A stretch of DNA of 34,051 nucleotides from Natronohydrobacter sp. Its GTDB lineage: Bacteria; Pseudomonadota; Alphaproteobacteria; Rhodobacterales; Rhodobacteraceae. Position 1 is the first letter of the stretch, and each line of letters begins with the position of its first letter. This document shows positions 14,298 to 28,155 of this stretch, one piece after another. A program made the translations under genes and the position numbers. Under the pieces are notes generated by a model, which worked only from the letters and a program-made list of their open reading frames with translations, was not told where the DNA came from and did no database searches. Location of the stretch: positions 1 to 34,051 of the forward strand of contig JAFIEL010000258.1 of assembly GCA_020832585.1 (NCBI GenBank). Direction: 5' to 3'.

Positions 14298-14372
14298 TCC
14301 GGCGTAGCTCAGCGGTAGAGCAGTTGACTGTTAATCAATTGGTCGTAGGTTCGATCCCTACCGCCGGAGCCA
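14298..14372 (+). tRNA. tRNA-Asn (anticodon GTT)
   Basis: The acceptor stem TCCGGCG pairs with CGCCGGA, followed by G73 and an encoded CCA. The D-loop contains AGCTCAGCGGTAGAG, the anticodon loop CTGTTAA gives GTT, and the T arm is GGTTCGATCCC. The 3' two thirds double as attL of the integrated element, which keeps the tRNA intact. Its natural terminator now appears to lie beyond attR. A possible -10 element (TATAGA) is at 14281-14286. Confidence 0.97.
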
Positions 14373-14376
14373 AAAA
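14326..14376 (+). other. attL, 51-bp core within tRNA-Asn
   Basis: This 51-nt segment runs from the anticodon stem through the T arm, acceptor stem, CCA and a short A run. It is identical to 28105-28155. Crossover by the tyrosine integrase within it restores a complete tRNA, as is usual for tRNA-targeting elements. Confidence 0.93.
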
Positions 14377-14562
14377 ACTCAGCAAAAGAAATGCGTTATG
14401 GACGGGCCCGTCTGGGCTCGTGTAGCTGAGCACAGTATAGGCACAGAATTCGGTCCAAGAAATGTGGCTCACGGCACGACTCGAAGTTTCCCGTTCCCGT
14501 TCCGTCCGCCGTGCGCTACATTGGGTAAGACCCCAACGAGAACACAAGATGTAGTCGCCAGC

Positions 14563-15663
14563 ATGAGCCTGAACTTCGTAGACCTATTTTCTTGCGGTGG
14601 CGGCATGTCCACTGGCTTCGCCGGACTTGGGCACCGCTCCATCGGGGCCGTCGACCTCGAGGTGGCAAAGCCCAGTCACGGGACCGGAGCCACCTCCTGC
14701 AACGACACCTACGAACGGAACCTCGGGCTGCGTCCCATGTCCGCTGACCTTGCCGTGACGGGGCCAGACGAGGTGGCAGGGCACTTCGGTTTCGGCGCCG
14801 GGGACGTTGACGTGCTTATCTCGTGTGCGCCGTGCACGGGCTTCAGTCAGAAGCAGAGTCGCAATCACGTTTTGGACGACGGCAGAAATAGCCTCGTCGC
14901 CAGGGCCGCCGTCTTCGCCGAGGCCTGGCGTCCACGATACGTGGTCATCGAGAACGTCAAGGAACTGCTGCGCGGGCGGCACAAGCACCACTTCCAGGGC
15001 CTACATCGCGGCCTGACGGACCTTGGCTACGAGGTCTTCGCCGAGATACACGATCTGAAGGACTTCGGCCTGCCTCAGAGCCGCATCCGCTCTCTAATCG
15101 TGGCCAAGCTCGGCGGCACCTTCCACCTAGAACTGCCTAGAGCTGCCCCGCGTACCGTCCGTGACGCGATCGGTCACCTCCCTCCCGTTATCGCTGGCGA
15201 GGCGCACCCCGACGACCCAATGCACGTCTGCCCTCGTATCAGCGGCCACTCGCTGGCTCGGATGCAGGCGATCCCCAAGGACGGGGGCAGCTGGACGGAC
15301 CTGACCGAGGAGCAGGCGCACCTGCGCATCCCGAGCATGAACGTGGAGAAGCCGGGCTCGTTCCCGGACGTATACGGGCGTCTCGCCTGGGATCGCCCTG
15401 CGCCCACGATCACCCGCGAGTGCAGCCATCCTGGTAACGGCCGCTACAGCCACCCTGAGCAGGACCGGCTTCTGACCGTGCGGGAGATGGCCCTCCTTCA
15501 GGGCTTCCCGCCCGACTACCACTTCGAGGGTTCGCTGTCATTCAAGTACCGGCAAATTGGTGACGCGGTCCCGCCCATGATCGCCCAGATGATAGCCAAG
15601 GCCATAACCGAGGACGCCGAAGGCCGCGTCGCGACGCCGAGCCAGTTGCGTTTCGCCGTCTAG
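14563..15663 (+). CDS. C5-cytosine DNA methyltransferase
   Basis: The 366-residue protein has the ordered motifs of C5-MTases: motif I NFVDLFSCGGGMSTGF, motif IV SCAPCTGFSQKQSRN with catalytic Cys (PCTGFS rather than the common PCQxFS), motif VI VVIENVKELL, motif VIII GLPQSRIRSLIVAK, and motifs IX-X LTVREMALLQGFP and YRQIGDAVPP. The start MSLNFVDLF at 14563 is preferred because the longer frame from 14398 adds 55 residues of low-quality sequence. The gene is convergent with the putative restriction enzyme, overlapping by 4 bp. It is co-directional with tRNA-Asn 190 bp upstream, with no terminator seen between. Recognition specificity cannot be read from the sequence. Confidence 0.93.
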   Translation: MSLNFVDLFSCGGGMSTGFAGLGHRSIGAVDLEVAKPSHGTGATSCNDTYERNLGLRPMSADLAVTGPDEVAGHFGFGAGDVDVLISCAPCTGFSQKQSRNHVLDDGRNSLVARAAVFAEAWRPRYVVIENVKELLRGRHKHHFQGLHRGLTDLGYEVFAEIHDLKDFGLPQSRIRSLIVAKLGGTFHLELPRAAPRTVRDAIGHLPPVIAGEAHPDDPMHVCPRISGHSLARMQAIPKDGGSWTDLTEEQAHLRIPSMNVEKPGSFPDVYGRLAWDRPAPTITRECSHPGNGRYSHPEQDRLLTVREMALLQGFPPDYHFEGSLSFKYRQIGDAVPPMIAQMIAKAITEDAEGRVATPSQLRFAV

Positions 15664-16427
15664 CCGGGACGACCCAGCTCCCACCAAGCGTGCAGCGGGC
15701 ACAGATCGACGTCCAGACCCGAAACCGTCACCTTCTCGACACTCCCGTCCAAGACCAGGCGGAATGCCCGGCGACCGTTCATCATGACGTTGGCACCCGT
15801 ACCACCCGCCTTCGTTAGCGGGCCGAAGTCGTCTGGCTCCAGGTGCGCAACCATCGCAAGGACGTCCTTCGGTATCTCCCTCAGATCGTATCGCACACGT
15901 CGCTGGTCCCCATAGCTCCGAAGGATGAAGATACGCTCGTACTCCTCAAGATGGGACAACACCCGACGCCTGACCTGTTCAGGGGCGTCAGCGTGGCTGC
16001 CTAGGTCCCTGATCCAGCGGGCCTCCATCAGCTTGGATATTGTGATCTTCTTCGGGTTGAGCCCGGCTGCCGCTTCTGTCTTGAGTGAGTAAGCGTGCCC
16101 ATCGACTTCCAGGTCCGCTCCACGGTTCACCATGCTACCGGTTAGGCTGGCGTCACGGCCCGAGCGCTTGAACGAGTGCTCCAAGATGTGCTCGAAGTTC
16201 TCCTTCTTGAGCGCGACGCCACTGGACGCGTGATGTGCGGCGAGCCTCGTCGAAAAGTACTCAAAGGCGTCCGCGTCCAGGAAGTCGACGCGCAGGTGCT
16301 CCCGCTCCTGCTCCTCAGCAAACTTGGCTATGATCCCGGTCAGCACTTCCACCTGAATAGGCGTGAGGCCACGCAACGCCGCGACCGCCTGCTCGATGTC
16401 CTGTCGCTTCCCAGCCTCGTCTGCCAT
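15660..16427 (-). CDS. Putative type II restriction endonuclease
   Basis: The 255-residue protein has no family I can name with certainty. Its centre reads GSMVNRGADLEVDGHAYSLKTEAAAGLNPKKITISKLMEARW. The spacing D...(S)LKTE resembles the PD-(D/E)XK nuclease core, with Asp of ADLEVDG and Lys-Thr-Glu as candidates. The ISKLMEARWI stretch is similar in style to type II enzymes that act on unmodified DNA. It is convergent with a C5-methyltransferase and their stop codons overlap, the geometry of many type II systems. The start at 16427 (MADEAGKRQ) is chosen; an ATG at 16439 would add four residues. The functional call rests mainly on context. Confidence 0.68.
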   Translation of the reverse strand: MADEAGKRQDIEQAVAALRGLTPIQVEVLTGIIAKFAEEQEREHLRVDFLDADAFEYFSTRLAAHHASSGVALKKENFEHILEHSFKRSGRDASLTGSMVNRGADLEVDGHAYSLKTEAAAGLNPKKITISKLMEARWIRDLGSHADAPEQVRRRVLSHLEEYERIFILRSYGDQRRVRYDLREIPKDVLAMVAHLEPDDFGPLTKAGGTGANVMMNGRRAFRLVLDGSVEKVTVSGLDVDLCPLHAWWELGRPG

Positions 16428-16509
16428 ACAGCCCGCCAAACCATTGAGTGTGGCGGACTATCTGGGATTGGCCTCTGCTGGTCAAGCAAATGGTTGAGGC
16501 TGCCGTTGG

Positions 16510-17043
16510 TCAGGTCTTGGCCCTCTTGCGGAGCGGCACGTCCACGCCCTTCTTACGCAGTGTCGCGGCGACAGAGGCGACCGAGCGGGTCGTCGTGTTC
16601 GCGCCGGGGAACTCGGCCACGACCCTCTCCACAATCTCCTGGTAGCCGAGGTCCGGGTCCATGAGGAGCTCGCCGACCAGAGCGCCGATGGTGGGACGGC
16701 GGCCTGCGGCCGTCTCGGTCGTGCCGTCTGCTTCGTGGTCTGTCGGTTCGGCTTCCTCGGTGGCATCCGGCTTGTGCGTGTCAGCTCGATCCGCGCCGAG
16801 AGCCTCGATCCGGTCGATTAGCTCGATCTTCGGTCGCTTCCACGACTGGAGGGGGTCCGAACCGCGCTTGTCAGCGAGGCCGTTGTGCAGGCGAAGCAGC
16901 GCCGACACGTTCAAGGCGACGAGTTCGGCCTTGTCGGCGATGCGGCCGAACACCTTGAGCGCCTTGTTGAGGGCGCTCTCGGCTTCGGCCTCCGTGCGCC
17001 CGTTGTCGTTGAGAAGGGCTTCGAGGGCTGTGATCGTGGTCAT
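16510..17043 (-). CDS. Unknown island protein with C-terminal wHTH-like region
   Basis: The 177-residue protein is not recognised. The start MTTITALEALL at 17043 is preceded by AAGGAGATTGAGACCG. The N-terminal 80 residues are helical (NGRTEAEAESALNKALKVFGRIADKAELVAL). An acidic, low-complexity linker follows (about 100-125), then TIGALVGELLMDPDLGYQEIVERVVAEFPGANTTTRSVASVAATLRKKG and a basic tail. That last region looks like a winged-helix DNA-binding domain (inference). It lies downstream of the 71-residue gene on the same strand, separated by a palindrome. A regulatory role in the element is possible. Confidence 0.65.
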   Translation of the reverse strand: MTTITALEALLNDNGRTEAEAESALNKALKVFGRIADKAELVALNVSALLRLHNGLADKRGSDPLQSWKRPKIELIDRIEALGADRADTHKPDATEEAEPTDHEADGTTETAAGRRPTIGALVGELLMDPDLGYQEIVERVVAEFPGANTTTRSVASVAATLRKKGVDVPLRKRAKT

Positions 17044-17073
17044 CGGTCTCAATCTCCTTGGGAGGGGGTTGGT

Positions 17074-17093
17074 GACGGGCGCGGGCGCCCGTC
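17074..17093. repeat. Perfect 9-bp-arm palindrome in a gene spacer
   Basis: GACGGGCGC and GCGCCCGTC are separated by GG, in the 63-bp spacer between two minus-strand genes. There is no U tract, so it is more likely an mRNA hairpin or attenuator than a classical terminator. Confidence 0.6.
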
Positions 17094-17106
17094 GGGCCGG
17101 CATGGC

Positions 17107-17322
17107 TCAGTCGAGCATCCCTGCGACGTCGAGGGCGAAGGCAAGGTCACGCAGCATGGCCCCGTTCCCGTGTACGAGGACGCGGACGAACTCGTCGCCG
17201 TGGTCGAAGGTCGTGACGGTGTAGTCCGCACCTGCGACGAGGTCAGGCGCCCGGCGTTCGAGGACGGTTGCCACGTTCACGCGTTCGATCATCGGGACGC
17301 TGGTCTGCATCGTGTGGGTCAT
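17107..17322 (-). CDS. Small unknown island protein (71 aa)
   Basis: The start MTHTMQTSVP at 17322 is preceded by GGAGACAGACCG, a good ribosome binding site; the longer frame to 17457 lacks one. The protein has a beta-rich core (VAGADYTVTTFDHGDEFVRVLVHG) and no membrane segment or metal motif. It is the first gene of a minus-strand pair and is divergent from the 113-residue gene across a 268-bp control region that holds one 44-bp two-palindrome repeat. Function is unknown. Confidence 0.6.
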   Translation of the reverse strand: MTHTMQTSVPMIERVNVATVLERRAPDLVAGADYTVTTFDHGDEFVRVLVHGNGAMLRDLAFALDVAGMLD

Positions 17323-17529
17323 CGGTCTGTCTCCTGTCTCGGTGTGTCCGTAGGGATAGGATGTCGCGGGTGGGGCTTTCCGAGAGCGGGGAAAACGCCT
17401 GCATCCGACGACGAATTGCTTCGGCCCCGAAGCGGAAAGTCGTTGGACCACGGCCACTTAGCCACGTACTTTCTCCCACCCCCACGACAGCATCGTCTCC
17501 AGGGCGGCCAATCCCGGCTCCCTGAGAAA

Positions 17530-17573: not shown

Positions 17574-17590
17574 GAGACGGAGACAGACAC

Positions 17591-17932
17591 ATGAGCTACA
17601 GAGTGACCTACGGCCCGGTCTACACGATCAGGGACTGCCTTGCGGACGCACAGGACGTCGCCATGACCGAGGCGCGGGCGCTGACCCGCGCCTGCGGGTT
17701 CCCCGTGACGGCGAGGGTCCATCGCCTCGGGCGCGCCGCCCGCGACGAGCTGGGCCGGGACGTGACGACAGTAGAGTTGGTCGGCAGCGCGGTGGGCGTC
17801 ATCGAGCACCGCCAGGCCCGCGTCCGCTGGGAACCTGCGGGGCGGGACCGCGTGGAACCGCTACGTCGGTACATTGGCGGCGAGGCCGTCGGCGGGCCGG
17901 TGATGATCCCGCTGCGCGGCACCGTTCGTTGA
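17591..17932 (+). CDS. Unknown island protein (113 aa)
   Basis: The start MSYRVTYGPVYTIRD at 17591 follows ACGGAGACAGACAC, a usable ribosome binding site. The protein is a soluble alpha/beta sequence with many Arg and Val, and it has no motif I recognise. Copy A of the 44-bp repeat is just upstream and probably controls it. A 12-bp-arm hairpin (17938-17978) follows the stop, before the HNH nuclease gene on the same strand. Confidence 0.62.
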   Translation: MSYRVTYGPVYTIRDCLADAQDVAMTEARALTRACGFPVTARVHRLGRAARDELGRDVTTVELVGSAVGVIEHRQARVRWEPAGRDRVEPLRRYIGGEAVGGPVMIPLRGTVR

Positions 17933-17937
17933 ACGAC

Positions 17938-17978: not shown

Positions 17979-17997
17979 CCCGATACACAATCGACAG

Positions 17998-18800: not shown

Positions 18801-19259
18801 TCAGGCCGTCAGGTTCTTGCGCGCGGCCTCCAGGTCCGCCTCGGTGGGTCCGCCGGTCGCAATGGCGTGGGCGTCGTCGCGGGTGCGGAGCAGCGCCCGG
18901 CCCATCTCAGTCTGGAGCATCCTGTCGTAGGCCTTCTCGAAGGTCTCGCCGTCCGCCTGCATCGTCCTGGCCAGCTTGTCCAGCTCGGCGTCCACGGCCT
19001 GGCGATTGTCCGCGGCTGCCTTCCGCACCCCGTCGGCCGAGTTCGCCGGTTCGTTCTTCGTCATGTCGCTCTCCTTCGCTGTGGTCGCCCGTGAGGACTC
19101 GACCTCCTGTTTTAGTCTCTCGACCTCCTGGGCGAGCTCGGCGACCTCACGGGCCTCCGCCTCGTCGCGGGCCAGGCGACCCAGGGCGTCCTCCAGTTCC
19201 TTCTTGCGTGCCTCCAGCCGTGTCAGCTCGGCCGCATACCTCTGTCCGTCCCGCGTCAT
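18801..19259 (-). CDS. Coiled-coil island protein with internal start
   Basis: The 152-residue protein is nearly all helical. Residues 1-60 are a strong coiled coil (LTRLEARKKELEDALGRLARDEAEAREVAELAQEVERLKQEV). The start at 19259 overlaps the stop of the upstream coiled-coil gene (ATGA). An in-frame ATG at 19064 has a stronger ribosome binding site (GAAGGAGAGCGAC) and would give an 87-residue C-terminal product, MTKNEPANSADG onward, without the coiled coil. Both products may be made. No homologue is recognised; a structural or scaffold-like role in capsid handling is only a hypothesis. Confidence 0.66.
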   Translation of the reverse strand: MTRDGQRYAAELTRLEARKKELEDALGRLARDEAEAREVAELAQEVERLKQEVESSRATTAKESDMTKNEPANSADGVRKAAADNRQAVDAELDKLARTMQADGETFEKAYDRMLQTEMGRALLRTRDDAHAIATGGPTEADLEAARKNLTA

Positions 19260-19912
19260 CCCTCGCCCTCCAGTGCCTCGAGTTCGCGCTGCGCCTCCCG
19301 GGCCACGTTCGGCTGCGGACTCTGCGCCCTGAGCCTGAGGAGCTCGCGGTGCAGACCGTCGGCCAGCCGTCCCTCCGCGTCCGTCAGCGTGGTCGCGTGC
19401 CTCGGGCGGATAGCCGTCTCGACCCCCAGGGCGCGAGACAGTTCCAGCCCTCCGCCGGCGATCAGGACCCTGACCAGCAGGTCGTTCTGGCGGTTGGTGA
19501 CCAGGCCCCGCTCGACCGGCGAGACGTCCGCGACGGACGCGGCGGCGCCCAGGCCCTTGCGCAGGGCGTCCTGGTAGGCCGGCCAGGCAGCGGCCAGGCG
19601 GGCGACGGCGTCGTCCACGGCTGCGGCCAGTTCCCGGCGCTCGCCCGCGGCCTCGATCGCTGCCTGCACCTGGCGCGTGCGGCGCCTGCGGGCCTCGGCC
19701 TCCTCGGCGTCGGCCAGCCGGTCCTGCAGTTCCGCGACCGCAGCGTCCACGACCTCGCGGCGCTCGGCCAGGGCGGCGAGGTGGCCGCTCGGCTTCCGGC
19801 CCGCGATCATCGCCTCGCGCGCCTCGACCCGCGCGTCCTCCAGGGTCGCGTCCAGCCTCTCGCGCTCTGCGCGCAGCTCGGCGAGTCTGGCCTCCATCTG
19901 TCCTTGATCCAT
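19256..19912 (-). CDS. Long coiled-coil island protein
   Basis: The 218-residue protein is rich in Ala, Glu, Arg and Leu. Two helical coiled-coil regions occupy roughly residues 1-115 and 185-218. The segment between them (PVERGLVTNRQNDLLVRVLIAGGGLELSRALG) is less charged and may be globular. The start MDQGQMEA at 19912 is preceded by GAGAGGATTACCG. A hairpin with arms at 19935-19944 and 19961-19970 lies just upstream in the leader. It is coupled to the next gene by ATGA. Size and composition are compatible with a scaffold-type protein, such as satellite capsid-size proteins, but no sequence match is claimed. Confidence 0.66.
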   Translation of the reverse strand: MDQGQMEARLAELRAERERLDATLEDARVEAREAMIAGRKPSGHLAALAERREVVDAAVAELQDRLADAEEAEARRRRTRQVQAAIEAAGERRELAAAVDDAVARLAAAWPAYQDALRKGLGAAASVADVSPVERGLVTNRQNDLLVRVLIAGGGLELSRALGVETAIRPRHATTLTDAEGRLADGLHRELLRLRAQSPQPNVAREAQRELEALEGEG

Positions 19913-20120: not shown

Positions 20121-20576
20121 TCAGGTGACGACGTCGTCCGCCATCTGGTCCAGCAGGTCCGAGTCGATGCACTTCCTGAACTTGAAGTAATAGGGGGTGT
20201 CCCGCATCTTTGACCGGTACCAGCGGATGCACTTGGCGTTCGGGTGGGCTGCGCCCGCCGCGCGGCAGGCGACCATGACGCTGCGAACCCATCCCCGCGG
20301 GAAGTCCAGCGTGCCAGACACGAACCACGTCCCGACGACGATCCGAAGCACGTTGTCCGAGGCCCGCAGGTCGGGGCGGGGGGCGAAGCGCAGGTCCTCC
20401 AGCGCCTCGGCGACCAGCGCGTCGGCGGCCGCCTGCGTGCGGGGGTAGACGGCGGAGAGGGGAATGTCGTGGCCTTCGATCATGCGGGCACCATGCCGCA
20501 AGGGGTCGGCCGAGTAAGCCAGCGAGGGGCACGCCTGACACGGGATCAGCGGGTCCGACGACTGGAAGGGCAACAT
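20121..20576 (-). CDS. Unknown island protein (151 aa)
   Basis: The protein is not recognised. It has an N-terminal PCQAC pair, a central beta-rich VLRIVVGTWFVSGTLDFPRGWVRSVMVACRAAG and a basic, aromatic stretch KCIRWYRSKMRDTPYYFKFRKCIDSD. The cysteines do not make a recognisable zinc site. An alternative start at 20483 (MIEGHDIPL) would remove 31 residues, including PCQAC; neither start has a strong ribosome binding site. It is last in the operon with the TerS-like gene, 59 bp after the 95-residue gene. Confidence 0.58.
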   Translation of the reverse strand: MLPFQSSDPLIPCQACPSLAYSADPLRHGARMIEGHDIPLSAVYPRTQAAADALVAEALEDLRFAPRPDLRASDNVLRIVVGTWFVSGTLDFPRGWVRSVMVACRAAGAAHPNAKCIRWYRSKMRDTPYYFKFRKCIDSDLLDQMADDVVT

Positions 20577-20635: not shown

Positions 20636-20923
20636 TCAGTCGTCGGCGTAGTAAGGCGTGCCCCCCACCCAGGCCAGGAGGTCGGCGCGCGTCCCCTCGT
20701 CGAGGTCGCCGCGTTCCCGGATCGACGCCATCGCCTCGTATCGCGCCGCCTCGGACGCCCAGGGGACCGGATCGTGACCAGCGCGCATCTCGGCCAAGAC
20801 GGCGTCCTCGGCCTGCAGGTACCCCAGGCAGGAGCGCATCGTGAGGTGCGTCCCGTCCGCGAAAGGCTTCACCACCACGCCGCCCGGGGTGACCAGGCAG
20901 ACGGTCATGTAGGGATCAGTCAT
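20636..20923 (-). CDS. Small unknown island protein (95 aa)
   Basis: Starts MTDPYMTVCLVTPGGVVVKPF; the ATG overlaps the end of the TerS-like gene by 8 nt, which suggests translational coupling. A beta-rich first half is followed by an acidic helical second half (AEDAVLAEMRAGHDPVPWASEAARYEAMASIRERGDLDEG). No family is recognised. The stop codon region carries TGAGCGGGAC (20629-20638), matching the first 10 bases of the 44-bp repeats. Its place after TerS suggests a packaging-related accessory, by position only. Confidence 0.6.
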   Translation of the reverse strand: MTDPYMTVCLVTPGGVVVKPFADGTHLTMRSCLGYLQAEDAVLAEMRAGHDPVPWASEAARYEAMASIRERGDLDEGTRADLLAWVGGTPYYADD

Positions 20924-21560
20924 CGGAGCGTCCCCCGGTCTCCTCAGGAGCTCCGTGAAGCACCTCGGCGTCCTCGACGTCCGAACGCCCTCGGAACGGC
21001 CCCGAGGCGACCAGGGAGCTCCGTGTGGACCCGGGGGAGCCTCCGACGAGGCGCGGCCGCCTGGGCAGCTCGTTGTGGACGTCCGTCTGGGAGTTCACGG
21101 TGACGTTGGTCTGGGCCGGGCCGTCCGCCGAGCTCATGCGCAGGGCGAGGAGCTTCGAGAGGATGCGGGAATCGACGTGGCCGGTTTCGAAGCGGTGCAC
21201 GACCTCGAAGTCCTCGTCCAGCTCGGGCTCGCCAGTGGCCGGGTCTATCACGGGCACCCACTTGCCCGTGCCCATCTCCATGGCGGTCTGGACCACGCGC
21301 TGGGTCAGCTCCTCCTCGAAGGCCGCGAGAGCTTCGTCCCACGCCTCCGCGAAGTCCGGGTTCTTCGCCCGTCGGTCGTAGAACGTGCGTCGGACCATTC
21401 CGGTCATGTTTGCGGCATACGTCACCTGGCCGAACTGCCTGAGGTGGCTCAGGAACTCCTGGCCCTTCTCGCCGTACACCTGGGCCAGCGCTGGGGCCAT
21501 CTGGCTCGGCTTGCGCGGGTCGGGCGCGGGCTTGATCCTGTTCATCCGCATGATGCTCAT
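20916..21560 (-). CDS. Terminase small subunit-like protein
   Basis: The 214-residue protein fits phage terminase small subunits. An N-terminal helix-turn-helix reads FLSHLRQFGQVTYAANMTGMVRRTFYDRRAKNPDFAEAWDEALAAFEEELTQRVVQTAMEMG, followed by DSRILSKLLALRM, the usual helical oligomerisation region, and a disordered charged C-terminus. TerS selects the DNA that TerL packages. No large terminase lies nearby, which in PICI-type satellites means the helper TerL is redirected to satellite DNA. It is in a minus-strand operon, one base after the 153-residue gene. Fold assignment is from pattern, not a search. Confidence 0.78.
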   Translation of the reverse strand: MSIMRMNRIKPAPDPRKPSQMAPALAQVYGEKGQEFLSHLRQFGQVTYAANMTGMVRRTFYDRRAKNPDFAEAWDEALAAFEEELTQRVVQTAMEMGTGKWVPVIDPATGEPELDEDFEVVHRFETGHVDSRILSKLLALRMSSADGPAQTNVTVNSQTDVHNELPRRPRLVGGSPGSTRSSLVASGPFRGRSDVEDAEVLHGAPEETGGRSDD

Positions 21561-21561
21561 C

Positions 21562-22023
21562 TCAGAGAAACTCCTCGACCTGGAAGTCCAGGGGCCTGGG
21601 CTCGACGCCTTCCCACCGGCTGCGGGGCGCGCGCCAACCGGCCCACCGAACTCCGAGCGCGTCGAGGTCGAAAGGCAGGTGGCCGTAGCACTGGCCCAGC
21701 GGCACGCCTTTGATTGCGTACCGCGGGCCCAGCCGGATTGGCATCTCGCCCAGCGGCTTGAACCGCTTCGCCGGGCATATGTAGCCGATCCACTGCCCTC
21801 TCCCTGGCAGGCTAAAGGCCAGGCAGGATTTCGGGACCATGCTGTCCATCACGAGGCCGCCCTCCTCCCACTCCAGGGGCAGCCCGTCGGACGTGCCAGC
21901 GCGGCACCGCTGTTGCGCCCGCTCGACGGCCCTGTTGTAGCTGGCGACCCACATGCGGGCTACGGCCAGGCTCATCGGACGGAGGGATGGCCGGCCGCTT
22001 GGCGGGGTGGGTAGGTAGGTCAT
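21562..22023 (-). CDS. Unknown island protein (153 aa), first in packaging operon
   Basis: Start MTYLPTPPSGRPS at 22023 follows TGAGGCCTCCG. The N-terminal half is helical (LRPMSLAVARMWVASYNRAVERAQQRCR). The second half is rich in aromatic, Gly and Pro residues (GQWIGYICPAKRFKPLGEMPIRLGPRYAIKGVPLGQCYGHLPFDLDALGVRWAGW) and looks like a compact beta domain. No family is recognised. It directly precedes the TerS-like gene and follows the probable origin region, so it may be a regulator or packaging helper; this is positional inference only. Confidence 0.6.
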   Translation of the reverse strand: MTYLPTPPSGRPSLRPMSLAVARMWVASYNRAVERAQQRCRAGTSDGLPLEWEEGGLVMDSMVPKSCLAFSLPGRGQWIGYICPAKRFKPLGEMPIRLGPRYAIKGVPLGQCYGHLPFDLDALGVRWAGWRAPRSRWEGVEPRPLDFQVEEFL

Positions 22024-22734
22024 CGGAGGCCTCACGCTGTTTCCGGCACTGTGTTTGATAAGATCGAGTTCCCCTAATCCCCTGACACGATTGCCCATCC
22101 TGCCGTCAGGTCCCCTGATTGTTTGTCAGGTGTGAGCCCTCTTGGCGGGACGGGTGGCGCGGTTCAGGTTTTGCGGGCGGCTCGCTCGTCGCTGTTCGAG
22201 GTCAAGATGCCGCCTTCCTTGGAACGAGTACGCCAGCGTTCTCACGCAGGCGCGCGATTGGCTCACGCGGGAGGGAGAGCAGACCACGGAGGGAGCCGGG
22301 CCTCGATGACGCTTCAAGCGTCATCCCTGCATCAAAGCGTCATCGTGTAACTTATTGTTTTTATTATCTTGATGGCACTGAAGACACTTAAGACGCTTAA
22401 TATCGCTTCTCGGCTCTCTGGACGTTCAGGCTGGCCGCACCGAATTCGGCGACACGAACGACCAGAGCGAGACGCAAAAAGCCACAGAACCAGAACTTAA
22501 GCGTCATCGCGCCGCAGCGTCATTTTCGCTTCCGAAACATGCGCTTAGCCGAAGGCGCTTGCATTTGGTAAGCGTCATCATGGTCCCCAAGCGTCATCGC
22601 CATCGCCGAAATGTTGCTCGCCCTGCTCGAACAAGCGGGACCCGCCGCCGAAAAACCGACATGGCGGGACCATCCGCCCGCGCCGGGCACGTGCCCGTCC
22701 GAACGGACACGGTGTGTCTGTTGCCCGTCAGTCA
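22024..22734. other. Long non-coding region: probable satellite origin
   Basis: About 710 bp without a convincing gene. From the left it holds the promoter region of the packaging operon, with CCTGAC/GTCAGG and CAGGGGA repeats (22075-22131). Next come iteron-like AAGCGTCATC repeats (22305-22598) around an AT-rich stretch (22345-22410), unusual in this GC-rich element. The replication gene ends just to the right. Iterons, an AT-rich segment and an adjacent primase-helicase gene together suggest the replication origin. Small open frames here lack ribosome binding sites and coding character. Confidence 0.7.
22305..22598. repeat. AAGCGTCATC iteron cluster
   Basis: Five exact direct copies start at 22316, 22335, 22499, 22570 and 22589, and one exact inverted copy lies at 22305-22314. 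Degenerate copies lie at 22392-22400 (inverted) and 22516-22523. The first and last pairs of direct copies are each spaced 19 nt start to start. This is the pattern of iterons bound by a replication initiator. Confidence 0.85.
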
Positions 22735-22778
22735 CAGTGGCGGCTGGGGCCTCCCTGGCGGGATCACGATCCCGCTCA
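22735..22778 (-). repeat. 44-bp bipartite palindromic repeat, copy B
   Basis: Its first palindrome is GCGGGATC-GT-GATCCCGC (22758-22775). Compared with copies A and C, both arms have changed together, which keeps the symmetry and argues for selection on the palindrome. The repeat begins with the TGA stop of the primase-helicase gene and extends toward the iteron region. 39 of 44 positions match copy C. Confidence 0.8.
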
Positions 22779-25016
22779 GTCGAACAGGTCGGAGGACCCG
22801 GAGCGTGCCTCGAACTTGGCCCTGGCGTCGCACAGGGCGGGCAGGTTCCAGGTGCGCTCGTCGCCCCTGTTTCGCGTCCCCGTGGTCAGTCCCACGAGCC
22901 GCTTCCCTTCGTTGACCAGGGCCCTGTGCGTGGCCCTCTCGCTGCGGAGCTGGTTCCGCCTGAGGAAGCGGTCGAACGCCTCCACGGTCGCGTCCTTCTC
23001 CTGTGGACCGAGCACCACCGCGCCCGTGCGCCAGTCGATTTCGTTTCCCGCCGCGTCGAAGCCGACCGGGAGCTCGCCCGAACCCAGCAGCTCGAACCAG
23101 AAGCGCGCGGCGGGCTTCATGCTCCTCAGCTTCTGGTCGGCCAGCGCCTGCGTCTGCGGTATCTCCATCGACGGGCGCCACCCCCGCAGGTCCAGGGCCA
23201 GCAGGTCGTGGACCATCCCGGCGAGGCCGCCGTCGTCCATCTGCCGTCCGAGTCGGCCGAAGTACTCGTGGTCCTGGCGTCGTCTGTCCGACACGTCCGA
23301 GACGAAGAAGCGCCTCGCGTAGGGTCCCGCCGGCACGATCCAGTCCTCGTTCGAGGCCATGGCCACGTGTACCATGTTGCGGCCCTGGGTGATGTCGCGC
23401 CCCTTGGCCTCGTAGGACAGGATTGGCTCGGTCACGAGCTGCTTGAGCACGGCCTCGCCCTCCTTGTCGCCCGGCCAGACGGCCTCGTCGGCGAACAGGA
23501 ACACGCAGTTGCGGAGGTGTGAGTTGAAGCGGCCCGCGAACTGCGAGCGGTGCGACACGGTGAGCCCGTGCTGGCCGGCGATGCGCATGAGCGCCCTGCC
23601 CAGTGTGCCCTTGCCGGTGCCCTCCTCGCCGCGGAACGCGATGGCGACCTCGGGCGTCTCCCAGGGCCTCTGGAGCATGTAGGCGATCCAGCGGAGCACG
23701 TACTCCTCCGAGGCCGCGTCGCCGTCGCAGAGGACCTCCCCGATCAGCTCGCGCATCATCGACCAGTCGCCCGGCGCGGGCTCGACGGCCCAGCCCTTCC
23801 AGAGGTTCAGCTTGCCCCAGTTATGGGGTAGCCCCTGCGGGTCCATGACGATGCCGGGGTACTTGCGGCGATGCGGGCTCGACAGCCACAGGTCCGCCCT
23901 GCTGATCCGCCTCTTTTCACCGACCTGGGCGAGGGTCTCGTCCTCGAAGTAGTGGCGAAACGCCTCGCGGCTCATCCTGGTCCAGGCGCTGCGCCCCTCG
24001 AAGATCGGGTCGGGCTCCTCCATGAAGACTTGGAACTGACCCCCGTCGAGGACGGCGCAGAACCGCTCATTCATCTCCCTCACGACGCGCGTGATCGGGT
24101 TGCCGCTGCCTTCGGGCTGCGCCCCCTCGGGCAGGTCGCCGGCCTCTATCACGTCGTCGAAGTCCTGGGCTATCCCGACCTCGCGGGTGGCGAGGTAGTC
24201 ACGGGCGATCTTCTCGACCTGAGCCCCCAGCCTGTCGCCGTACTTCTCGACGGCGAAGTCGCAGTGCTCGGCGAGGACCGAGAGCACCGAGGCGGCCGAC
24301 AGGCCGTGCGCGAGGAGCTGCCAGACCAGGGACGCGACGGCCTCCGACCGCTCGCCCGTACCGACCTGCTCCACGATGCGATCACGCAGGCGCTTTGGCA
24401 GTCCGTCGAAGTCCACCTCCGCGCCGTCGCCCCAGTCCAGCTCCACGCCGGAGGCGTCCGCGGCGCCCCCGCTCGTCCTGATGCCTGCGAAGGCCACCGG
24501 GGACAGGCGGCGTCCGTCTCGCATCCTGCCCTGTTCGAAGGCGCGGGCTAGCAGCCTGATCGACTGCGGGTTCAAGCGCACCTGACCGCCATGCGTCCTG
24601 AGCTCGCCCCCCGCCTCGCCCTCGATCGGGTCCTCGACCCGGAACTTCCAGTTCCCCACGGCGTCCGCCGCTTCGCAGCGGACCCAGACGTGACCCTTGC
24701 GCGCGAGGCCGGACGACGAGGGGGTTGTGACGGCATGTGTGTCCCCGGCCCACTCGACCGCGACCTCAGGACCGTCCCCTTCGTCGCAGTCCAGCACCAC
24801 GCAGCCGAGGGACACAGGCTGCACACCGACCGAGTTCTTCGACGAACGGCCCAGGTGCGCCAACACCTCGTCCAGCGTCGGGCGCAGCCTTGGCCACTCT
24901 GACTGGAACGCGTCTTTGCCCTTCAGCAGGACGTATGCAGGCTCCAGGCCGGTCGTACGGCAGGCGGCGTCGAACGCGCGGAGCTCCGCCGAAAGGGTTA
25001 TTGGTTTATCGGCCAT
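22776..25016 (-). CDS. PrimPol-helicase replication protein
   Basis: The 746-residue protein is a two-part replication enzyme. The N-terminal region (about 1-120) resembles archaeo-eukaryotic primase/PrimPol domains, with an Asp-x-Asp motif in VVLDCDEGDG and a later SSGLARKGHVWVR. The central part (about 420-600) is a P-loop helicase of the phage/plasmid D5-like type: Walker A RGEEGTGKGTLGRAL near residue 465, Walker B CVFLFADEAVW near 505, and VHVAMASNEDWIVPAG as sensor I. It would prime and unwind at the neighbouring iteron origin. It lies 3 bp after the 80-residue HTH gene. The start MADKPITLSAE at 25016 is well placed. Confidence 0.87.
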   Translation of the reverse strand: MADKPITLSAELRAFDAACRTTGLEPAYVLLKGKDAFQSEWPRLRPTLDEVLAHLGRSSKNSVGVQPVSLGCVVLDCDEGDGPEVAVEWAGDTHAVTTPSSSGLARKGHVWVRCEAADAVGNWKFRVEDPIEGEAGGELRTHGGQVRLNPQSIRLLARAFEQGRMRDGRRLSPVAFAGIRTSGGAADASGVELDWGDGAEVDFDGLPKRLRDRIVEQVGTGERSEAVASLVWQLLAHGLSAASVLSVLAEHCDFAVEKYGDRLGAQVEKIARDYLATREVGIAQDFDDVIEAGDLPEGAQPEGSGNPITRVVREMNERFCAVLDGGQFQVFMEEPDPIFEGRSAWTRMSREAFRHYFEDETLAQVGEKRRISRADLWLSSPHRRKYPGIVMDPQGLPHNWGKLNLWKGWAVEPAPGDWSMMRELIGEVLCDGDAASEEYVLRWIAYMLQRPWETPEVAIAFRGEEGTGKGTLGRALMRIAGQHGLTVSHRSQFAGRFNSHLRNCVFLFADEAVWPGDKEGEAVLKQLVTEPILSYEAKGRDITQGRNMVHVAMASNEDWIVPAGPYARRFFVSDVSDRRRQDHEYFGRLGRQMDDGGLAGMVHDLLALDLRGWRPSMEIPQTQALADQKLRSMKPAARFWFELLGSGELPVGFDAAGNEIDWRTGAVVLGPQEKDATVEAFDRFLRRNQLRSERATHRALVNEGKRLVGLTTGTRNRGDERTWNLPALCDARAKFEARSGSSDLFD

Positions 25017-25019
25017 GGC

Positions 25020-25262
25020 TCAGCCCCGCCGACCTGCGACGTACTCCTCGACGGCGGCACGCGGGTAGAAGACCTCGCGACCCACCTTCACGAACTCGGG
25101 TCCCGCGTTCTCGTTCCCCCTCCTGCGGCGCGAACGATAGACGGCCAGCACCGTCTCGGGGTGGCCTGTCATCCGGCTGGCTTGCTCGGGTGTCAGTAAG
25201 CCGAGGTCAGCGAACGAGGGCGTGACAGGGGCCGATGGCGCGGCATACTCAGGGTCAGTCAT
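25020..25262 (-). CDS. Small HTH protein (MerR/excisionase-like)
   Basis: The 80-residue protein reads LLTPEQASRMTGHPETVLAVYRSRRRRGNENAGPEFVKVGREVFYPRAAVEEYVAG. This is the winged helix-turn-helix of AlpA/excisionase-like DNA-binding proteins (helix_turn_helix_17 type). The start at 25262 follows GGAAGACCC. It is directly upstream of the primase-helicase and downstream of copy C of the 44-bp repeat, which makes it a candidate replication co-factor or regulator that binds one of the element repeats. Confidence 0.75.
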   Translation of the reverse strand: MTDPEYAAPSAPVTPSFADLGLLTPEQASRMTGHPETVLAVYRSRRRRGNENAGPEFVKVGREVFYPRAAVEEYVAGRRG

Positions 25263-25534
25263 GGGTCTTCCTTTCTCGTAGGGCGGATCATCGAGCCGAC
25301 GTCGGGGGCGGTCCGACGTCGGCTTGCACTCCTCGAACAATGCCGCGGCGCCGTGTCGGCGTAAGCCAACGTGGGTCGCAGCGTCGTCCAACGCTGGCAG
25401 TATACCCGGCCGGGGCCGTGCCTGCATACCAACGAATCGTGGGGGGCTGTGCCCACGACGCGGGCCAGGCCGGACACGTCCGCGCGTCTGAGCGGGACCG
25501 TGGTCGCGCCAGGGTGGCCCCGGCCGCCACTGTG
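25263..25534. promoter_or_regulatory. Control region of the replication operon
   Basis: These 272 bp lie upstream of the HTH/primase-helicase operon on the minus strand and contain copy C of the 44-bp repeat. No coding potential is seen. The operon promoter is expected here, and copy C would place a regulator about 225 bp upstream of the HTH start codon. Confidence 0.5.
25489..25532 (+). repeat. 44-bp bipartite palindromic repeat, copy C
   Basis: Opposite in orientation to copies A and B. The first palindrome is GCGGGACC-GT-GGTCGCGC (one arm mismatch, 25492-25509) and the second is GGTGGCC-CC-GGCCGCC. It matches copy B at 39 of 44 and copy A at 38 of 44 positions by eye. Confidence 0.8.
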
Positions 25535-25918
25535 TCAGCGGGCGGCGATCCGGCGCGCCAGGTCCACTAGGAGGTCGTCCTCCCAGAAGTCCGCGTTGCT
25601 CCGCGGGGAGGCCAGCGCCTCGTCCGCCCACCCGAGGCGGACGGTGTAGCGCACGGGCACCGGGCCGCGCGGCAGCTCCTCCCGGACGATACCCATCGGG
25701 AACCGGCCGGTCCGCCTCGCGAGCATCGACAGGCAGGCGTCGTCGTGTCCGTTGAAGCCGACGCGGGCACAGGCCTCGACGATTGCGTCCACGGGGTCCA
25801 TGGCGATCAGGTCCGGGACCGTGTCGAGCAGCGCCTCGGCCAGGGCCTTGCGCTCCTCCTCGTTCGAGTAGTCGGGGTCGGGCTCGCGGGTCTGCTGGAA
25901 CACCCTAACGCGGCTCAT
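25535..25918 (-). CDS. Unknown island protein (127 aa)
   Basis: Start MSRVRVFQQTREP overlaps the stop of the AlpA-like gene (ATGA), giving a coupled pair. The protein is soluble and acidic-helical in the first half (SNEEERKALAEALLDTVPDLIAMDPVDAIVEACARVGFNGHDDACLSMLARRTG), followed by a short beta region and NADFWEDDLLVDLARRIAAR. No family is recognised. Coupling to an AlpA-like regulator suggests a role in control or excision of the element. Confidence 0.64.
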   Translation of the reverse strand: MSRVRVFQQTREPDPDYSNEEERKALAEALLDTVPDLIAMDPVDAIVEACARVGFNGHDDACLSMLARRTGRFPMGIVREELPRGPVPVRYTVRLGWADEALASPRSNADFWEDDLLVDLARRIAAR

Positions 25919-26100
25919 GCGGCACCCGCGGTCAGGAAGGCGTCCAGGTCCTCGCGGTGGTAGCGCACGATCCGGCCCACCGTGCGGTAGCGCGGCCCGG
26001 CGCCTGCCGTCCTCCAGTTGCGCATGGTGCCGGGCGAGACGCTCAGGTAAGCGGCGGCCTGTTCGGTGGTCATCCAGGGTGACCGGGGGTCGTGGTGCAT
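25915..26100 (-). CDS. AlpA-family excisionase/regulator
   Basis: The 61-residue protein is almost entirely a helix_turn_helix_17/AlpA domain: WMTTEQAAAYLSVSPGTMRNWRTAGAGPRYRTVGRIVRYHREDLDAFL. Such proteins act as excisionases or activators of integrase genes in P4-like and PICI-type satellites. The start at 26100 follows GCGAGGAGACACCC, a strong ribosome binding site. It is next to the integrase gene and overlaps the 127-residue gene by ATGA. Confidence 0.86.
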   Translation of the reverse strand: MHHDPRSPWMTTEQAAAYLSVSPGTMRNWRTAGAGPRYRTVGRIVRYHREDLDAFLTAGAA

Positions 26101-26165
26101 GGGTGTCTCCTCGCAGCGGATGCGAGCAGATTACGCCGGATGACGCCGCCGCGCACACCAGCATG

Positions 26166-27338
26166 TCAGCCCGCACGCGCCCGCCTTCCGTCCAGCACCA
26201 CGACCTCGGCGGACCCGCCCGGCTCGGCCTCCCGCAGGACCAGGTCCTCGAGGGCCTGGGCGTGCGGGCGCAGCGCCTCGACGAGGTGGGCCTGGTGCAC
26301 GTACCCGCCCGAGGCCCCGGGCAGCCGCTGCCCCAGCAGTAGCGCCCCCTCCGCGTAGGGGACGCCGGCCGCGATCATCATCGTCCTGGCGTGGTGGCGC
26401 AGCGCGTGGGGCGACGGCACCCCGCCCCGCTTGGGCTCGGCGATGTGTCCGGTGGCCGACCCCGGCGACGGCCAGAGCCACGGCGAGTTTAGCGGCGCGT
26501 CCTCGTCCAGCCTCGCCCGCAGGGCCGCGGTCAGCCACCGGCCGGTCGGGAACGCCCACGACCCCCCGGTCTTCATGTGGGTGAAAGTCAGGACGGCCCT
26601 CTCGGCGTCGAAGTCGGCGCGCCTCACCCCCAGCAGCGACGTGCGCCTCGCACCCGTCAGCAGGAACGCGCGCTGGAGGTCTCGCATCACCGGGGACATG
26701 GCGCTTGTGACCGACCAGAACCCGGCCACGTCCATCTCGCCCACCTTCCGCCTCGGCGTGGCGGGTACGCGGATGGCGTCCACAGGGTTCGCGCCTATCG
26801 TCTCGTCGTGGCGCCGCGCCGTGTTCACAAGCGCCCGGACCGTCCGCATCACCGAGCCACCGGTGGTCTTGCCGTGGCGCCGCGTCAGCGTGTCCAGGAG
26901 GTCTCGGCAGTCCTGGCGCGTGATGTCAGCCACGGCGCGCTTCCGAAGCCGACCGAGGTAGTTGTCCATGTGATACTGGTAGTTCCGCACGGTGGCGTCG
27001 GACAGGTCACGCTCCTTGAGGTGTGCGGCCAGCGCTTGCTCCAGCGTGATCCCGCTCGACTCGGGCCCCGCGGTCGGGTCGACGCCCGACTGGATCGTGG
27101 CCATGAGCTTGCGCGCCTCGTTCCGGGCCTCGGCCAGTCTCACGTGGTCCACCCTGCCGATCTTGACCCGCACGGTGCGGACGTGCCTTTTCTGACGCCT
27201 CACGTCGCCTTGGACACAGTAAGATTTCGTCGTCTTGTGGCAGATACACATGAGGCCCTTCACCTCGGTGTCGCGGTGGATGCCGGAGCCAAGGGGCAGG
27301 TCCCGGATGCGGTTCTCGGTGAACTTAAATATCGCCAT
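26166..27338 (-). CDS. Tyrosine-type site-specific integrase
   Basis: The 390-residue phage-type integrase has an N-terminal arm-binding domain (residues 1-95), a SAM-like core-binding domain (about 95-190) and a catalytic domain. Catalytic residues are R231 (TGARRTSLLGV), K256 (HMKTGGSW), H311-x-x-R314 (HALRHHA) and Y346 (SGGYVHQA). The usual second His is replaced by Gln337 (LLLGQRLPG). It would recombine attP with the 3' end of tRNA-Asn. The start MAIFKFTENR at 27338 is chosen over 27446, which would run far into the HNH gene. The HNH stop overlaps its start by 14 nt. Confidence 0.93.
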   Translation of the reverse strand: MAIFKFTENRIRDLPLGSGIHRDTEVKGLMCICHKTTKSYCVQGDVRRQKRHVRTVRVKIGRVDHVRLAEARNEARKLMATIQSGVDPTAGPESSGITLEQALAAHLKERDLSDATVRNYQYHMDNYLGRLRKRAVADITRQDCRDLLDTLTRRHGKTTGGSVMRTVRALVNTARRHDETIGANPVDAIRVPATPRRKVGEMDVAGFWSVTSAMSPVMRDLQRAFLLTGARRTSLLGVRRADFDAERAVLTFTHMKTGGSWAFPTGRWLTAALRARLDEDAPLNSPWLWPSPGSATGHIAEPKRGGVPSPHALRHHARTMMIAAGVPYAEGALLLGQRLPGASGGYVHQAHLVEALRPHAQALEDLVLREAEPGGSAEVVVLDGRRARAG

Positions 27339-27966
27339 CGTAGCGTGCCCCCTTTGAAAAGTTGTCTTCCGCCCAGAGCGGTTGAAGGTTGGTGAAGTGG
27401 AAGCACGCTCGTTGCTGTCGGGAGTCCGAGAGGTCAAAGGATGCAACGGGGCGAATGTGGTCGACGTGCCATTCGCCGTAGTTCGCCCAGGTCATCCCCG
27501 GCTGAAACTGGGCTTCCAAATACTGGATGAGTTCCTTGGTCGAGCAACCGACGAGCGTCAGCGTTGTGTCGGATTTTGCGAGGCCGCAAAGGGCGTGGCG
27601 AAGTCTTGTGCGAAAGACGACAGCCAACTTGAAGGGAACGTCATTTTGATAACGCTCACTGGCACGAATTCGTCGACGCTCCCGTCCAGTGTTTTCATGC
27701 CATTCAGCAACCTTTTCTTTGCCACCTCGCTCGAGCCATTGCTTGCGTGTCACTCTCTGCGCCTTTACCCGACTCATCTTATGGTTTTTTGGCCACAGGT
27801 AATAGACGAGGGTCGACGAGGTTGGCGTCAGTCCAAGCCGTGAGCACGCTTCCTTAGCCAGTGAAAGATGCGTTTTCCCGGAAAGGCCGAGGGAACACAT
27901 CCTTCGGCCGAGTTCTCTTGTCGACTGGACGCCATCAAGCTCCAGCATCATTTGGTTTATATCCAT
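27325..27966 (-). CDS. HNH endonuclease (right paralogue)
   Basis: The 213-residue protein has the HNH core WHVDHIRPVASFDLS...FHFTNLQPLWAEDNFSKG, identical at about two thirds of positions to the core at 17998-18708. The shared lead-in is TLTLVGCSTKELIQYLEAQFQPGMTW. The N-terminal part differs and looks like a small DNA-binding region (GLTPTSSTLVYYLWPKNHKMSRVKAQRVTRKQW). The ATG at 27966 follows AGGACTGTGCTC; a GTG at 27984 is the alternative. It is co-transcribed with, and overlaps, the integrase gene. Base composition is less GC-rich than in the left paralogue. Confidence 0.84.
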   Translation of the reverse strand: MDINQMMLELDGVQSTRELGRRMCSLGLSGKTHLSLAKEACSRLGLTPTSSTLVYYLWPKNHKMSRVKAQRVTRKQWLERGGKEKVAEWHENTGRERRRIRASERYQNDVPFKLAVVFRTRLRHALCGLAKSDTTLTLVGCSTKELIQYLEAQFQPGMTWANYGEWHVDHIRPVASFDLSDSRQQRACFHFTNLQPLWAEDNFSKGARYDGDI

Positions 27967-28104
27967 GAGCACAGTCCTGAACACAGTGTTTGGGTTGACT
28001 TCGAGTGACGCCAGATGGCGCTACAGGACTGATTATGTATCGTTTTCAAGGGGTCGTATGCCCTGAAATGGCAGGCAATGGCGCCCGATTACAGCGCCTC
28101 CCCG

Positions 28105-28155
28105 GACTGTTAATCAATTGGTCGTAGGTTCGATCCCTACCGCCGGAGCCAAAAA
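28105..28155 (+). other. attR, truncated tRNA-Asn copy
   Basis: The 51 bp are identical to 14326-14376 but lack the 5' part of the tRNA, so this is not a functional gene. It marks the right end of the element. Confidence 0.93.

What the first reader, a model, noticed from the sequence alone, without database searches (positions are those of the whole stretch)
14326..28155. A PICI-like phage satellite integrated in tRNA-Asn of a Rhodobacteraceae-type genome
Seen: a perfect 51-bp direct repeat, integrase next to attR, AlpA-like gene, PrimPol-helicase, iterons and a TerS-like gene, with no TerL, portal, capsid, tail or lysis gene in 13.8 kb. Known: PICIs and P4-like satellites combine int, alpA, primase-rep, ori and TerS and rely on a helper phage. 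Inference: this is a satellite, and most of its accessory genes are not recognised here, so the lineage may be undescribed.
Basis: partly seen in the sequence, partly recalled or inferred. Interest (0 to 1): 0.75.

Follow-up and report, generated by a model that had tools for sequence, protein, structure and literature searches.

The report
Phage satellite family in Rhodobacterales bacteria
This 13.8 kb stretch of bacterial DNA looks like a 'phage satellite', a genetic parasite that carries an anti-phage weapon and probably hitch-hikes between bacteria inside the particles of a larger virus.

Summary
A perfect 51-bp repeat bounds a 13,779-bp island in tRNA-Asn with integrase, AlpA-type gene, primase-helicase, six iterons and terS, and no significant TerL, portal, capsid, tail or lysis gene. 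Three same-genus genomes show the uninterrupted site with one copy. Eight sister islands, in eight other genus labels of the same family, share the repeat word, integrase, alpA, terS and four unnamed core families in the same order; no TerL (phrog_2) hit falls inside any of the nine. Median dN/dS of core genes is 0.09-0.36, which argues against a decayed prophage. The tRNA-side end is a cargo slot: a SmaI-family restriction pair here; Shedu-, Thoeris-, CBASS- and NaeI-type genes in sisters. Iterons vary with the replication module while a block before terS stays, making that block a candidate packaging or regulatory site. TerS resembles, weakly, that of Roseobacter phage RDJL6, hinting at an RDJL-like helper. 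Islands with both ends are 13.8-15.7 kb. I judge it a PICI-like satellite lineage that I did not find described in the papers I could search. Induction, helper dependence, packaging and transfer are untested.

The parts
14298..14372 (+). tRNA-Asn (GTT), integration target; its 3' part is the first repeat copy
   Evidence: ARAGORN, Rfam RF00005
14326..14376 (+). 51-bp repeat, tRNA-side att copy
   Evidence: genus-mate alignment ends at 14376
14563..15663 (+). cargo: C5-cytosine DNA methyltransferase
   Evidence: PF00145 6.2e-46; 83% identical copy in tRNA-Leu island L067
15660..16427 (-). cargo: SmaI-family type II restriction endonuclease
   Evidence: PF17411 2.5e-21; 74% identical copy in L067
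16510..17043 (-). recurrent satellite gene of unknown function
   Evidence: phrog_37268 6.8e-9 on the longer frame 16510-17103; found in window, L039, L061, L062, L064, L097 = 6 of 9 islands; L041 and L065 are cut by contig ends, no match in L098
17107..17322 (-). small ORF, unknown
   Evidence: ORF list; no Pfam/PHROG match of the longer frame 17107-17457
17591..17932 (+). unknown ORF, shared with L062
   Evidence: 48% over 93 aa
17998..18708 (+). endonuclease VII / HNH-type ORF
   Evidence: phrog_1035 5.1e-13
18801..19259 (-). core family 18801: N-terminal coiled coil plus C-terminal helical part, with an internal in-frame ATG (codon 66) behind GGAG-N6
   Evidence: 9 of 9 islands, only the C-part in L098; internal start in 8 of 8 with the N-part; AF2
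19256..19912 (-). core family 19256: all-helical, long coiled coil
   Evidence: 9 of 9 islands; alignment; AF2
20121..20483 (-). core family 20121, unknown
   Evidence: 9 of 9 islands; alignment
20636..20923 (-). core family 20636, unknown, overlaps the end of terS
   Evidence: 9 of 9 islands; alignment
20916..21560 (-). terS, small terminase subunit
   Evidence: phrog_4044 7.7e-11; family HMM hits RDJL6 TerS at 2.6e-12
21562..22023 (-). ORF without a tblastn match in the sister islands; lies between the conserved block and terS here
   Evidence: no match at 1e-4
22035..22245 (-). conserved block before terS (CGCTGGCRTAC ... TGACCTCGAAC), candidate pac/cos or regulatory site, probably noncoding
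   Evidence: alignments; motif scan; frame test
22305..22598 (.). iteron cluster AAGCGTCATC x6 with AT-rich stretch at 22353 and CTAAG-N4-TGTTTCGGA at 22531; probable replication origin
22776..25016 (-). primase-helicase (replication protein)
   Evidence: PF19263 2e-19, phrog_1156 8.1e-52
25020..25262 (-). small HTH-type gene next to the primase gene
   Evidence: weak HTH_17 0.0062 on the longer frame 25020-25631, below Pfam's cut-off; 9 of 9 islands
25535..25918 (-). unknown gene overlapping the end of alpA
   Evidence: homologues in L062 and L065
25915..26100 (-). AlpA/excisionase-type regulator
   Evidence: HTH_17 1.7e-14, phrog_66 2.8e-10
26166..27338 (-). tyrosine integrase
   Evidence: phrog_1 1.2e-34 (frame 26166-27446); 77-88% identical in the 8 sister islands
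27325..27966 (-). endonuclease VII/HNH-type gene between int and the second repeat, only in this island of the nine
   Evidence: phrog_1035 4.7e-12; distance 767 vs 140-141 bp
28105..28155 (+). 51-bp repeat, integrase-side att copy

Best explanation
The island is an intact member of a PICI-like phage-satellite lineage found in the bacterial family of the window's genome. SHOWN: site-specific insertion at tRNA-Asn, empty sites, a recurring core and gene order, purifying selection on the core, no TerL hit inside the islands, a variable cargo slot rich in defence genes. INFERRED: on infection by a helper phage the AlpA-type protein promotes excision by the integrase at the 51-bp repeat; the primase-helicase works on the adjacent iteron origin and makes multimers; satellite TerS, recognising a satellite site (best candidate the conserved block between iterons and terS), redirects the helper's large terminase so that satellite DNA enters helper particles; the four unnamed core genes after terS assist packaging, capsid choice or helper interference; the cargo defends the host against other phages. 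An RDJL-like virulent siphophage is my best present guess for the helper, because TerS and primase both fall in families carried by such phages; that part alone I hold at about 0.4.
For: att repeat and tRNA; empty sites; nine islands with shared core and order; no phrog_2 hit inside any; dN/dS medians int 0.09 (28 of 28 pairs computable), TerS 0.20 (28 of 28), primase 0.20 (3 of 3), 18801 0.27 (14 of 15), 19256 0.29 (20 of 21), 20121 0.33 (15 of 21), 20636 0.36 (15 of 21); sister cargo Shedu, ThsB, DncV-like and Cap15, NaeI, four C5 methyltransferases and three Vsr among 41 proteins; lengths of the six islands with both ends 13,779, 15,410, 15,508, 14,951, 14,754 and 15,693 bp and of two tRNA-Leu relatives 15,438 and 14,633 bp; module-specific iterons beside a constant pre-terS block; TerS HMM against 1,202 six-frame ORFs of five phage or viral loci ranks the TerS of RDJL6 (2.6e-12) and RcSimone-Hastad (1.5e-9) first, then an AAT-1 ORF (2.3e-5), next 0.043; shared PHROG families with RDJL6 and RcSimone-Hastad for TerS and primase.
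Against: No expression, excision, packaging or transfer data. The helper guess is weak: tblastn of the window's TerS against 50,697 phage records finds nothing at 1e-5 and at E up to 10 its listed rows are weak, RDJL6 0.03 the best; the L067 TerS instead hits a Nitrincola phage first at 2e-3, Rhodobacter phages only at 0.1-0.2. The AAT-1 ORF is annotated there as terminase large subunit part I, although the same region carries terS names in phiH1 and PaMx28. In RDJL6 and RcSimone-Hastad terS is not next to the primase gene. The pre-terS block has no phage match except two Gordonia rows at E 0.3 and no exact-pattern match in IMG/VR; no relative of terS, 19256, 18801 or 20121 was confirmed in IMG/VR. 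Fold searches gave nothing significant. One pair of 20121 reaches dN/dS 0.98 and some pairs could not be computed. L064 has a stop in the N-part of 18801. L098 carries both repeats, but no tRNA precedes its outer copy.
Confidence: 0.82

Rival explanations
1. Decayed prophage: a former temperate phage that lost its structural genes and kept int, replication and terS.
For: terS and primase are phage-type genes; one stop in the 18801 gene of L064.
Against: Nine islands with nine genus labels share one core and order without a phrog_2 hit inside; core genes are under purifying selection; islands with both ends keep to 13.8-15.7 kb. Independent decay to one set is unlikely.
Confidence: 0.06
2. Integrative mobilizable or conjugative element, or its remnant, moved by conjugation.
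For: tRNA insertion and defence cargo are also common on such elements (established knowledge).
Against: No relaxase, coupling or secretion family in the 18 island ORFs or among the 19 Pfam families of 41 sister cargo proteins; terS in 9 of 9 islands points to packaging.
Confidence: 0.03
3. Same satellite reading, but the helper is an unsequenced temperate phage or another phage type, not an RDJL-like virulent phage.
For: Only the HTH region and the following DPxTGE segment of TerS match RDJL6, at low identity; another satellite TerS hits a Nitrincola phage first.
Against: RDJL6 and RcSimone-Hastad infect bacteria of the same order and carry both families.
Confidence: 0.5
4. The conserved block before terS is a control region of the terS operon, or a short coding stretch, rather than a packaging site.
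For: It lies directly upstream of terS in several islands; one forward frame is open over 180 nt in 5 of 9 islands.
Against: In the window an ORF separates it from terS; no frame of six is open in all nine; consensus RNA folding has an unfavourable covariation term, +0.94.
Confidence: 0.45

Closest known systems
Gram-negative phage-inducible chromosomal islands (PICIs), e.g. EcCICFT073 (PMC6092414, passages read)
   Same: integrase, alpA, primase-replicase followed by an origin, terS in some, accessory genes.
   Different: Beyond int, AlpA, primase and TerS I found no shared gene; the four core families after terS have no significant Pfam match. The text has 0 occurrences of Alphaproteobacteria or Rhodobact-. 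Induction and packaging are untested here.
PICMIs of Vibrionaceae (PMC10803314, passages read)
   Same: int, AlpA (PF12728) and a primase with DUF5906 (PF19263); marine; helper is a virulent phage.
   Different: PICMIs are sought in fis, are about one eighth of the phage genome, and 'terminase' has 0 occurrences in the main text; here the site is tRNA-Asn, the length 13.8-15.7 kb, with terS and defence cargo.
P4-like satellites (PMC8628076, listing and start of abstract only; gene content recalled)
   Same: int, AlpA-type gene, primase-helicase, tRNA insertion, defence cargo (partly recalled).
   Different: No Psu-, Delta- or Sid-named family in the scans of the 18 ORFs; terS present here, recalled as absent from P4.
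Roseobacter phage RDJL6 (Xiamenvirus)
   Same: TerS (phrog_4044) and primase (phrog_1156) families.
   Different: A 64-kb phage with TerL, capsid and tail genes; a possible helper, not a relative as an element.

Membership tests
PICI | Specific attachment site with att repeats | tested here: met
   51-bp repeat in tRNA-Asn, empty sites
PICI | int, regulator (alpA in Gram-negatives), primase-replicase and adjacent origin | tested here: met
   the origin is inferred from iterons
PICI | No own TerL or virion genes | tested here: met
   for the window; phrog_2 in nine host genomes
PICI | Genes exclusive to PICIs | tested here: inconclusive
   Pfam and PHROGs place int, AlpA, primase and TerS only in broad families; no PICI collection was at hand
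PICI | Phage-dependent induction | not testable with these tools
   needs infection experiments
PICI | Phage interference and packaging into phage-like particles | not testable with these tools
   terS and cargo are suggestive only
PICMI | Insertion in fis | tested here: not met
   tRNA-Asn site
PICMI | Integrase (PF00589), AlpA (PF12728) and DUF5906 primase | tested here: met
   PF00589 only at 0.00042, below Pfam's cut-off, but PHROG integrase 1.2e-34
Capsid-forming PICI (definition recalled) | Own capsid and packaging gene set | tested here: not met
   no significant capsid, portal or TerL family in 18 ORFs
P4-like satellite (definition recalled) | Psu/Delta/Sid genes | tested here: inconclusive
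   no such name among the hits; no P4 protein was compared directly
Decayed prophage | Relatives with the missing structural genes; relaxed selection | tested here: not met
ICE/IME | Relaxase or conjugation genes | tested here: not met

The most novel reading that the evidence does not exclude
A separate satellite family of Rhodobacterales built from two exchangeable cassettes: a replication cassette in which primase-helicase and iterons are swapped together, and a fixed packaging cassette (pre-terS block, terS and four exclusive genes) that took its terminase from RDJL-like virulent phages, holds the element near 15 kb to fit a fixed particle or a whole-number multimer of a roughly 60-kb helper genome, and makes one of its proteins in two forms from an internal start.
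Probability: 0.3. Interest if true: 0.72.

Novelty: new variant of a known kind. Interest (0 to 1): 0.5.

Why it matters
From my own knowledge, phage satellites are described mainly in Gammaproteobacteria, Firmicutes and a few Actinobacteria; my searches found no paper on them in Rhodobacterales. This lineage would extend them to an abundant marine group for which RDJL-type phages have been isolated, so helper use can be tested directly. It shows restriction, Shedu-, Thoeris- and CBASS-type genes in one slot of a mobile satellite, and the split between swapped iterons and a constant pre-terS block makes the packaging-site question testable.

Tried and rejected
IMG/VR scans with the primase (2 distant loci) and with the terS, 19256, 18801 and 20121 alignments (0 confirmed) found no close viral relatives; the scans use short peptide patterns, so this is not proof of absence. 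AlphaFold models of 19256 (pLDDT 82.5) and 18801 (77.0) are helical; Foldseek against viral structures for both and against the PDB for 19256 gave nothing at E <= 0.001, so capsid redirection by these proteins stays speculation. An RNA-leader reading of the pre-terS block was not supported by consensus folding. Rfam at gathering scores finds only the tRNA in 14200-28300. My first reading of that block as closed in one frame in L039 was wrong: a frame count shows no frame open in all nine but one open in 5 of 9.

Rows left out of the nine-island count: L043 (int 70%, alpA, primase 55%; contig ends before terS), L066/L102 (terS cut at contig end, no int seen), L067 and L068 (tRNA-Leu islands), L069 and L100 (distant, no tRNA called), L099 (terS fragment only), L044 to L048 (primase relatives without a terS match), L008 to L011 (more distant primase relatives from Bradyrhizobium and Methylobacterium). 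dN/dS sets left out L098 throughout; L097 was used only for int and terS, L064 was not used for 18801, and primase used three islands. PADLOC output for the 41 cargo proteins is cut at 25 of 151 families, all methyltransferase-type, so the other defence names rest on Pfam. The SmaI name is a family name; the cutting site is unknown.
Full report
WHAT IS THERE. The 51-bp repeat is exact and its first copy is the 3' part of tRNA-Asn. A DNA search of the draft genome (3.3 Mb, 259 contigs, 86.6% complete) finds no third copy. Between the copies I read 18 likely genes from ORF and codon-position lists, annotated with Pfam and PHROGs: a C5 methyltransferase and a SmaI-family endonuclease beside the tRNA; small unknown genes; terS; an iteron region; a primase-helicase; two HTH-type genes; an integrase; and an HNH-type gene beside the second repeat. 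The six iterons AAGCGTCATC all lie at 22305-22598, with 0.09 expected in the whole window. Weak virion-named rows are listed under the observation check.

EMPTY SITES AND FLANKS. A search with the left flank in 37 genomes of the genus label matched all 37 to some extent, some only in the tRNA. In L072/L085 (G663), L073 (G658) and L075 (G660) the left flank runs through one tRNA copy straight into sequence like the window's right flank up to 28199-28203: three uninterrupted sites. In genus-mate L082 the match (86% over 7.4 kb) ends at 14376 and what follows differs. Beyond the second repeat the window holds an AT-rich stretch and an EcoRII-type restriction-modification pair, which I treat as separate.

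A FAMILY OF ISLANDS. A genome-contig scan with the primase gave seven loci, three of them close (86-88%): Boseongicola sp. H5, an alphaproteobacterial MAG and Tropicimonas isoalkanivorans DSM 19548, the last placed by NCBI in Rhodobacterales, Roseobacteraceae. The terS protein matched 11 of 390 order genomes at 1e-5 and the terS alignment 9 of 394 family genomes at 1e-8, the own genome counted in both. A tRNA-Asn gene is called at the tRNA-side end in five of them (window, L039, L062, L064, L097). L041, L061 and L065 are cut by contig ends before that side; L098 has both repeat copies, but AT-rich DNA, not a tRNA, precedes the outer one. Int, alpA, the small HTH gene, terS, 20636, 20121, 19256 and 18801 were found in 9 of 9 (only the C-part of 18801 in L098). 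The six islands with both ends measure 13,779 to 15,693 bp. Two tRNA-Leu islands with a related terS, L067 and L068, have 56- and 58-bp repeats and measure 15,438 and 14,633 bp.

SATELLITE, NOT A WRECK. TerL (phrog_2) hits exist in 16 of 16 genomes tested, none inside an island. Forty-one cargo proteins chosen from seven sister islands gave 19 Pfam families, many of them defence-type: C5 methyltransferases (4 proteins), Vsr (3), NaeI, Shedu, Thoeris ThsB, a DncV-like synthase and Cap15. The PHROG list shows 25 of 53 families; one, matched by one protein, is named tail fiber and was not traced. Median dN/dS per core gene is 0.09-0.36; the highest single pair is 0.98, in 20121. The window's methyltransferase-endonuclease pair recurs at 83% and 74% identity in L067, at another tRNA, so cargo moves between satellite lineages.

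TWO CASSETTES. Between primase and terS the islands carry repeats of different kinds; I chose the words by eye and then counted them. Counts in the intergenic stretch, with the rest of the island in brackets: GATGACGCT 6 (0) in the window; GACGCT 7 (7), 9 (4) and 7 (11) in L039, L041 and L061, the rest being many times longer; GTTGAGC 8 (0) in L062; GTTGACG 5 (1) and 4 (2) in L064 and L065, L064 also having GTTGAGC 3 (2); GGTCAGGG 10 (2) in L097; GGGCGGAC 4 (1) in L098. The replication proteins also differ: phrog_256-type helicases behind a phrog_1156-type N-terminus in L062, L064 and L065, two separate ORFs in L097, phrog_1156 in L098. The window and L039, L041, L061 share one primase type with related but not identical repeats. 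By contrast CGCTGGCRTAC, 23-24 bases, then TGACCTCGAAC stays in front of terS in 8 of 9 islands with at most one mismatch per word; L098 has only the first word, with one mismatch. No frame of six is open over 180 nt in all nine, though one is in five, and consensus folding gives no covariation support. I infer a DNA site for TerS or for regulation.

A GENE WITH TWO STARTS. In 8 of 8 genes of family 18801 that have the N-part, an in-frame ATG is preceded by GGAG and six bases. L064 has a stop upstream of it and L098 lacks the upstream part, yet both keep the downstream part. A separately translated C-terminal protein is the simplest reading; it is not shown.

HELPER. The window's primase is about 43% identical over residues 280-741 to primases of 56-64-kb phages. 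The terS HMM from eleven satellite sequences picks the TerS of RDJL6 (2.6e-12) and RcSimone-Hastad (1.5e-9) out of 1,202 six-frame ORFs of five loci, then an AAT-1 ORF annotated as terminase large subunit part I (2.3e-5; the same region is named terS in related phages); the next is 0.043. For RDJL6 the match covers the HTH and the DPxTGE segment. In AAT-1, DoCa5, phiH1 and phiH2 the primase and terS-type matches lie 0.8-0.9 kb apart on one strand, much as in the satellites; in RDJL6 and RcSimone-Hastad they are 7 and 11 kb apart. Direct tblastn is weak. This is a hint about source, not proof of a helper.

LITERATURE. Searches of the open-access library: 'phage satellite' with Rhodobacteraceae 0 papers, 'phage satellites' with Rhodobacterales 0, with Roseobacter 1 (passages read, a different element), with Alphaproteobacteria 5 (listing), PICI with Rhodobacter 10 (listing), PICI with Alphaproteobacteria, tRNA and terminase small subunit 0, five satellite terms 8 (listing), phage-parasitizing or virion-encapsidated elements 17 (listing of 15), SatelliteFinder 12 (listing). 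Passages of PMC6092414 and PMC10803314 were read. Marine 'VEIME' satellites are known to me by recall only and may include relatives. I found no description of this lineage in what I searched; subscription papers and most preprints were not searched.

Noticed in passing
window 27325-27966: HNH/endonuclease VII-type gene placed at the start of int in this island alone: int-to-repeat distance 767 bp here, 140-141 bp in 8 of 8 sisters; looks like a free-standing homing-type endonuclease, with a same-PHROG gene at 17998-18708.
   Followed up: partly
window 17553-17570, 22758-22775, 25492-25509: Three copies of a 55-70-nt repeat built round the palindrome GCGGGAYC-N2-GRTCCCGC (one with a mismatch); the palindrome changes on both arms between two copies. 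L039, L041 and L061 seem, by eye, to have another GC-rich dyad after the primase gene.
   Followed up: partly
window 29917-32888: EcoRII-type endonuclease and C5 methyltransferase outside the second repeat, behind an AT-rich stretch with two ORFs without Pfam match: perhaps a second defence insertion. No further full or partial att copy was found in the window.
   Followed up: partly
L104 and L105 (G367, G388): Two distant satellites with a related terS share 74-80% identical chromosomal flank, each with a TerL hit about 10.7 kb from its integrase gene; no tRNA called there. The TerL may belong to a gene transfer agent cluster (inference).
   Followed up: partly
L039:17586-17660 and 17791-17865: Two tandem tRNA-Asn genes; the island adjoins the first.
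   Followed up: no
L098:505-551: The outer repeat copy is preceded by very AT-rich DNA instead of the tRNA 5' half, as if another element had inserted between tRNA and island.
   Followed up: no
L008 (Bradyrhizobium sp. BRP22): A more distant primase relative (39%) has a tRNA-Asn gene 7 kb away in the same locus; possibly a wider group of tRNA-Asn elements.
   Followed up: no
L064:6443-6895: In-frame stop in the N-terminal part of the 18801 homologue, C-terminal part open.
   Followed up: partly
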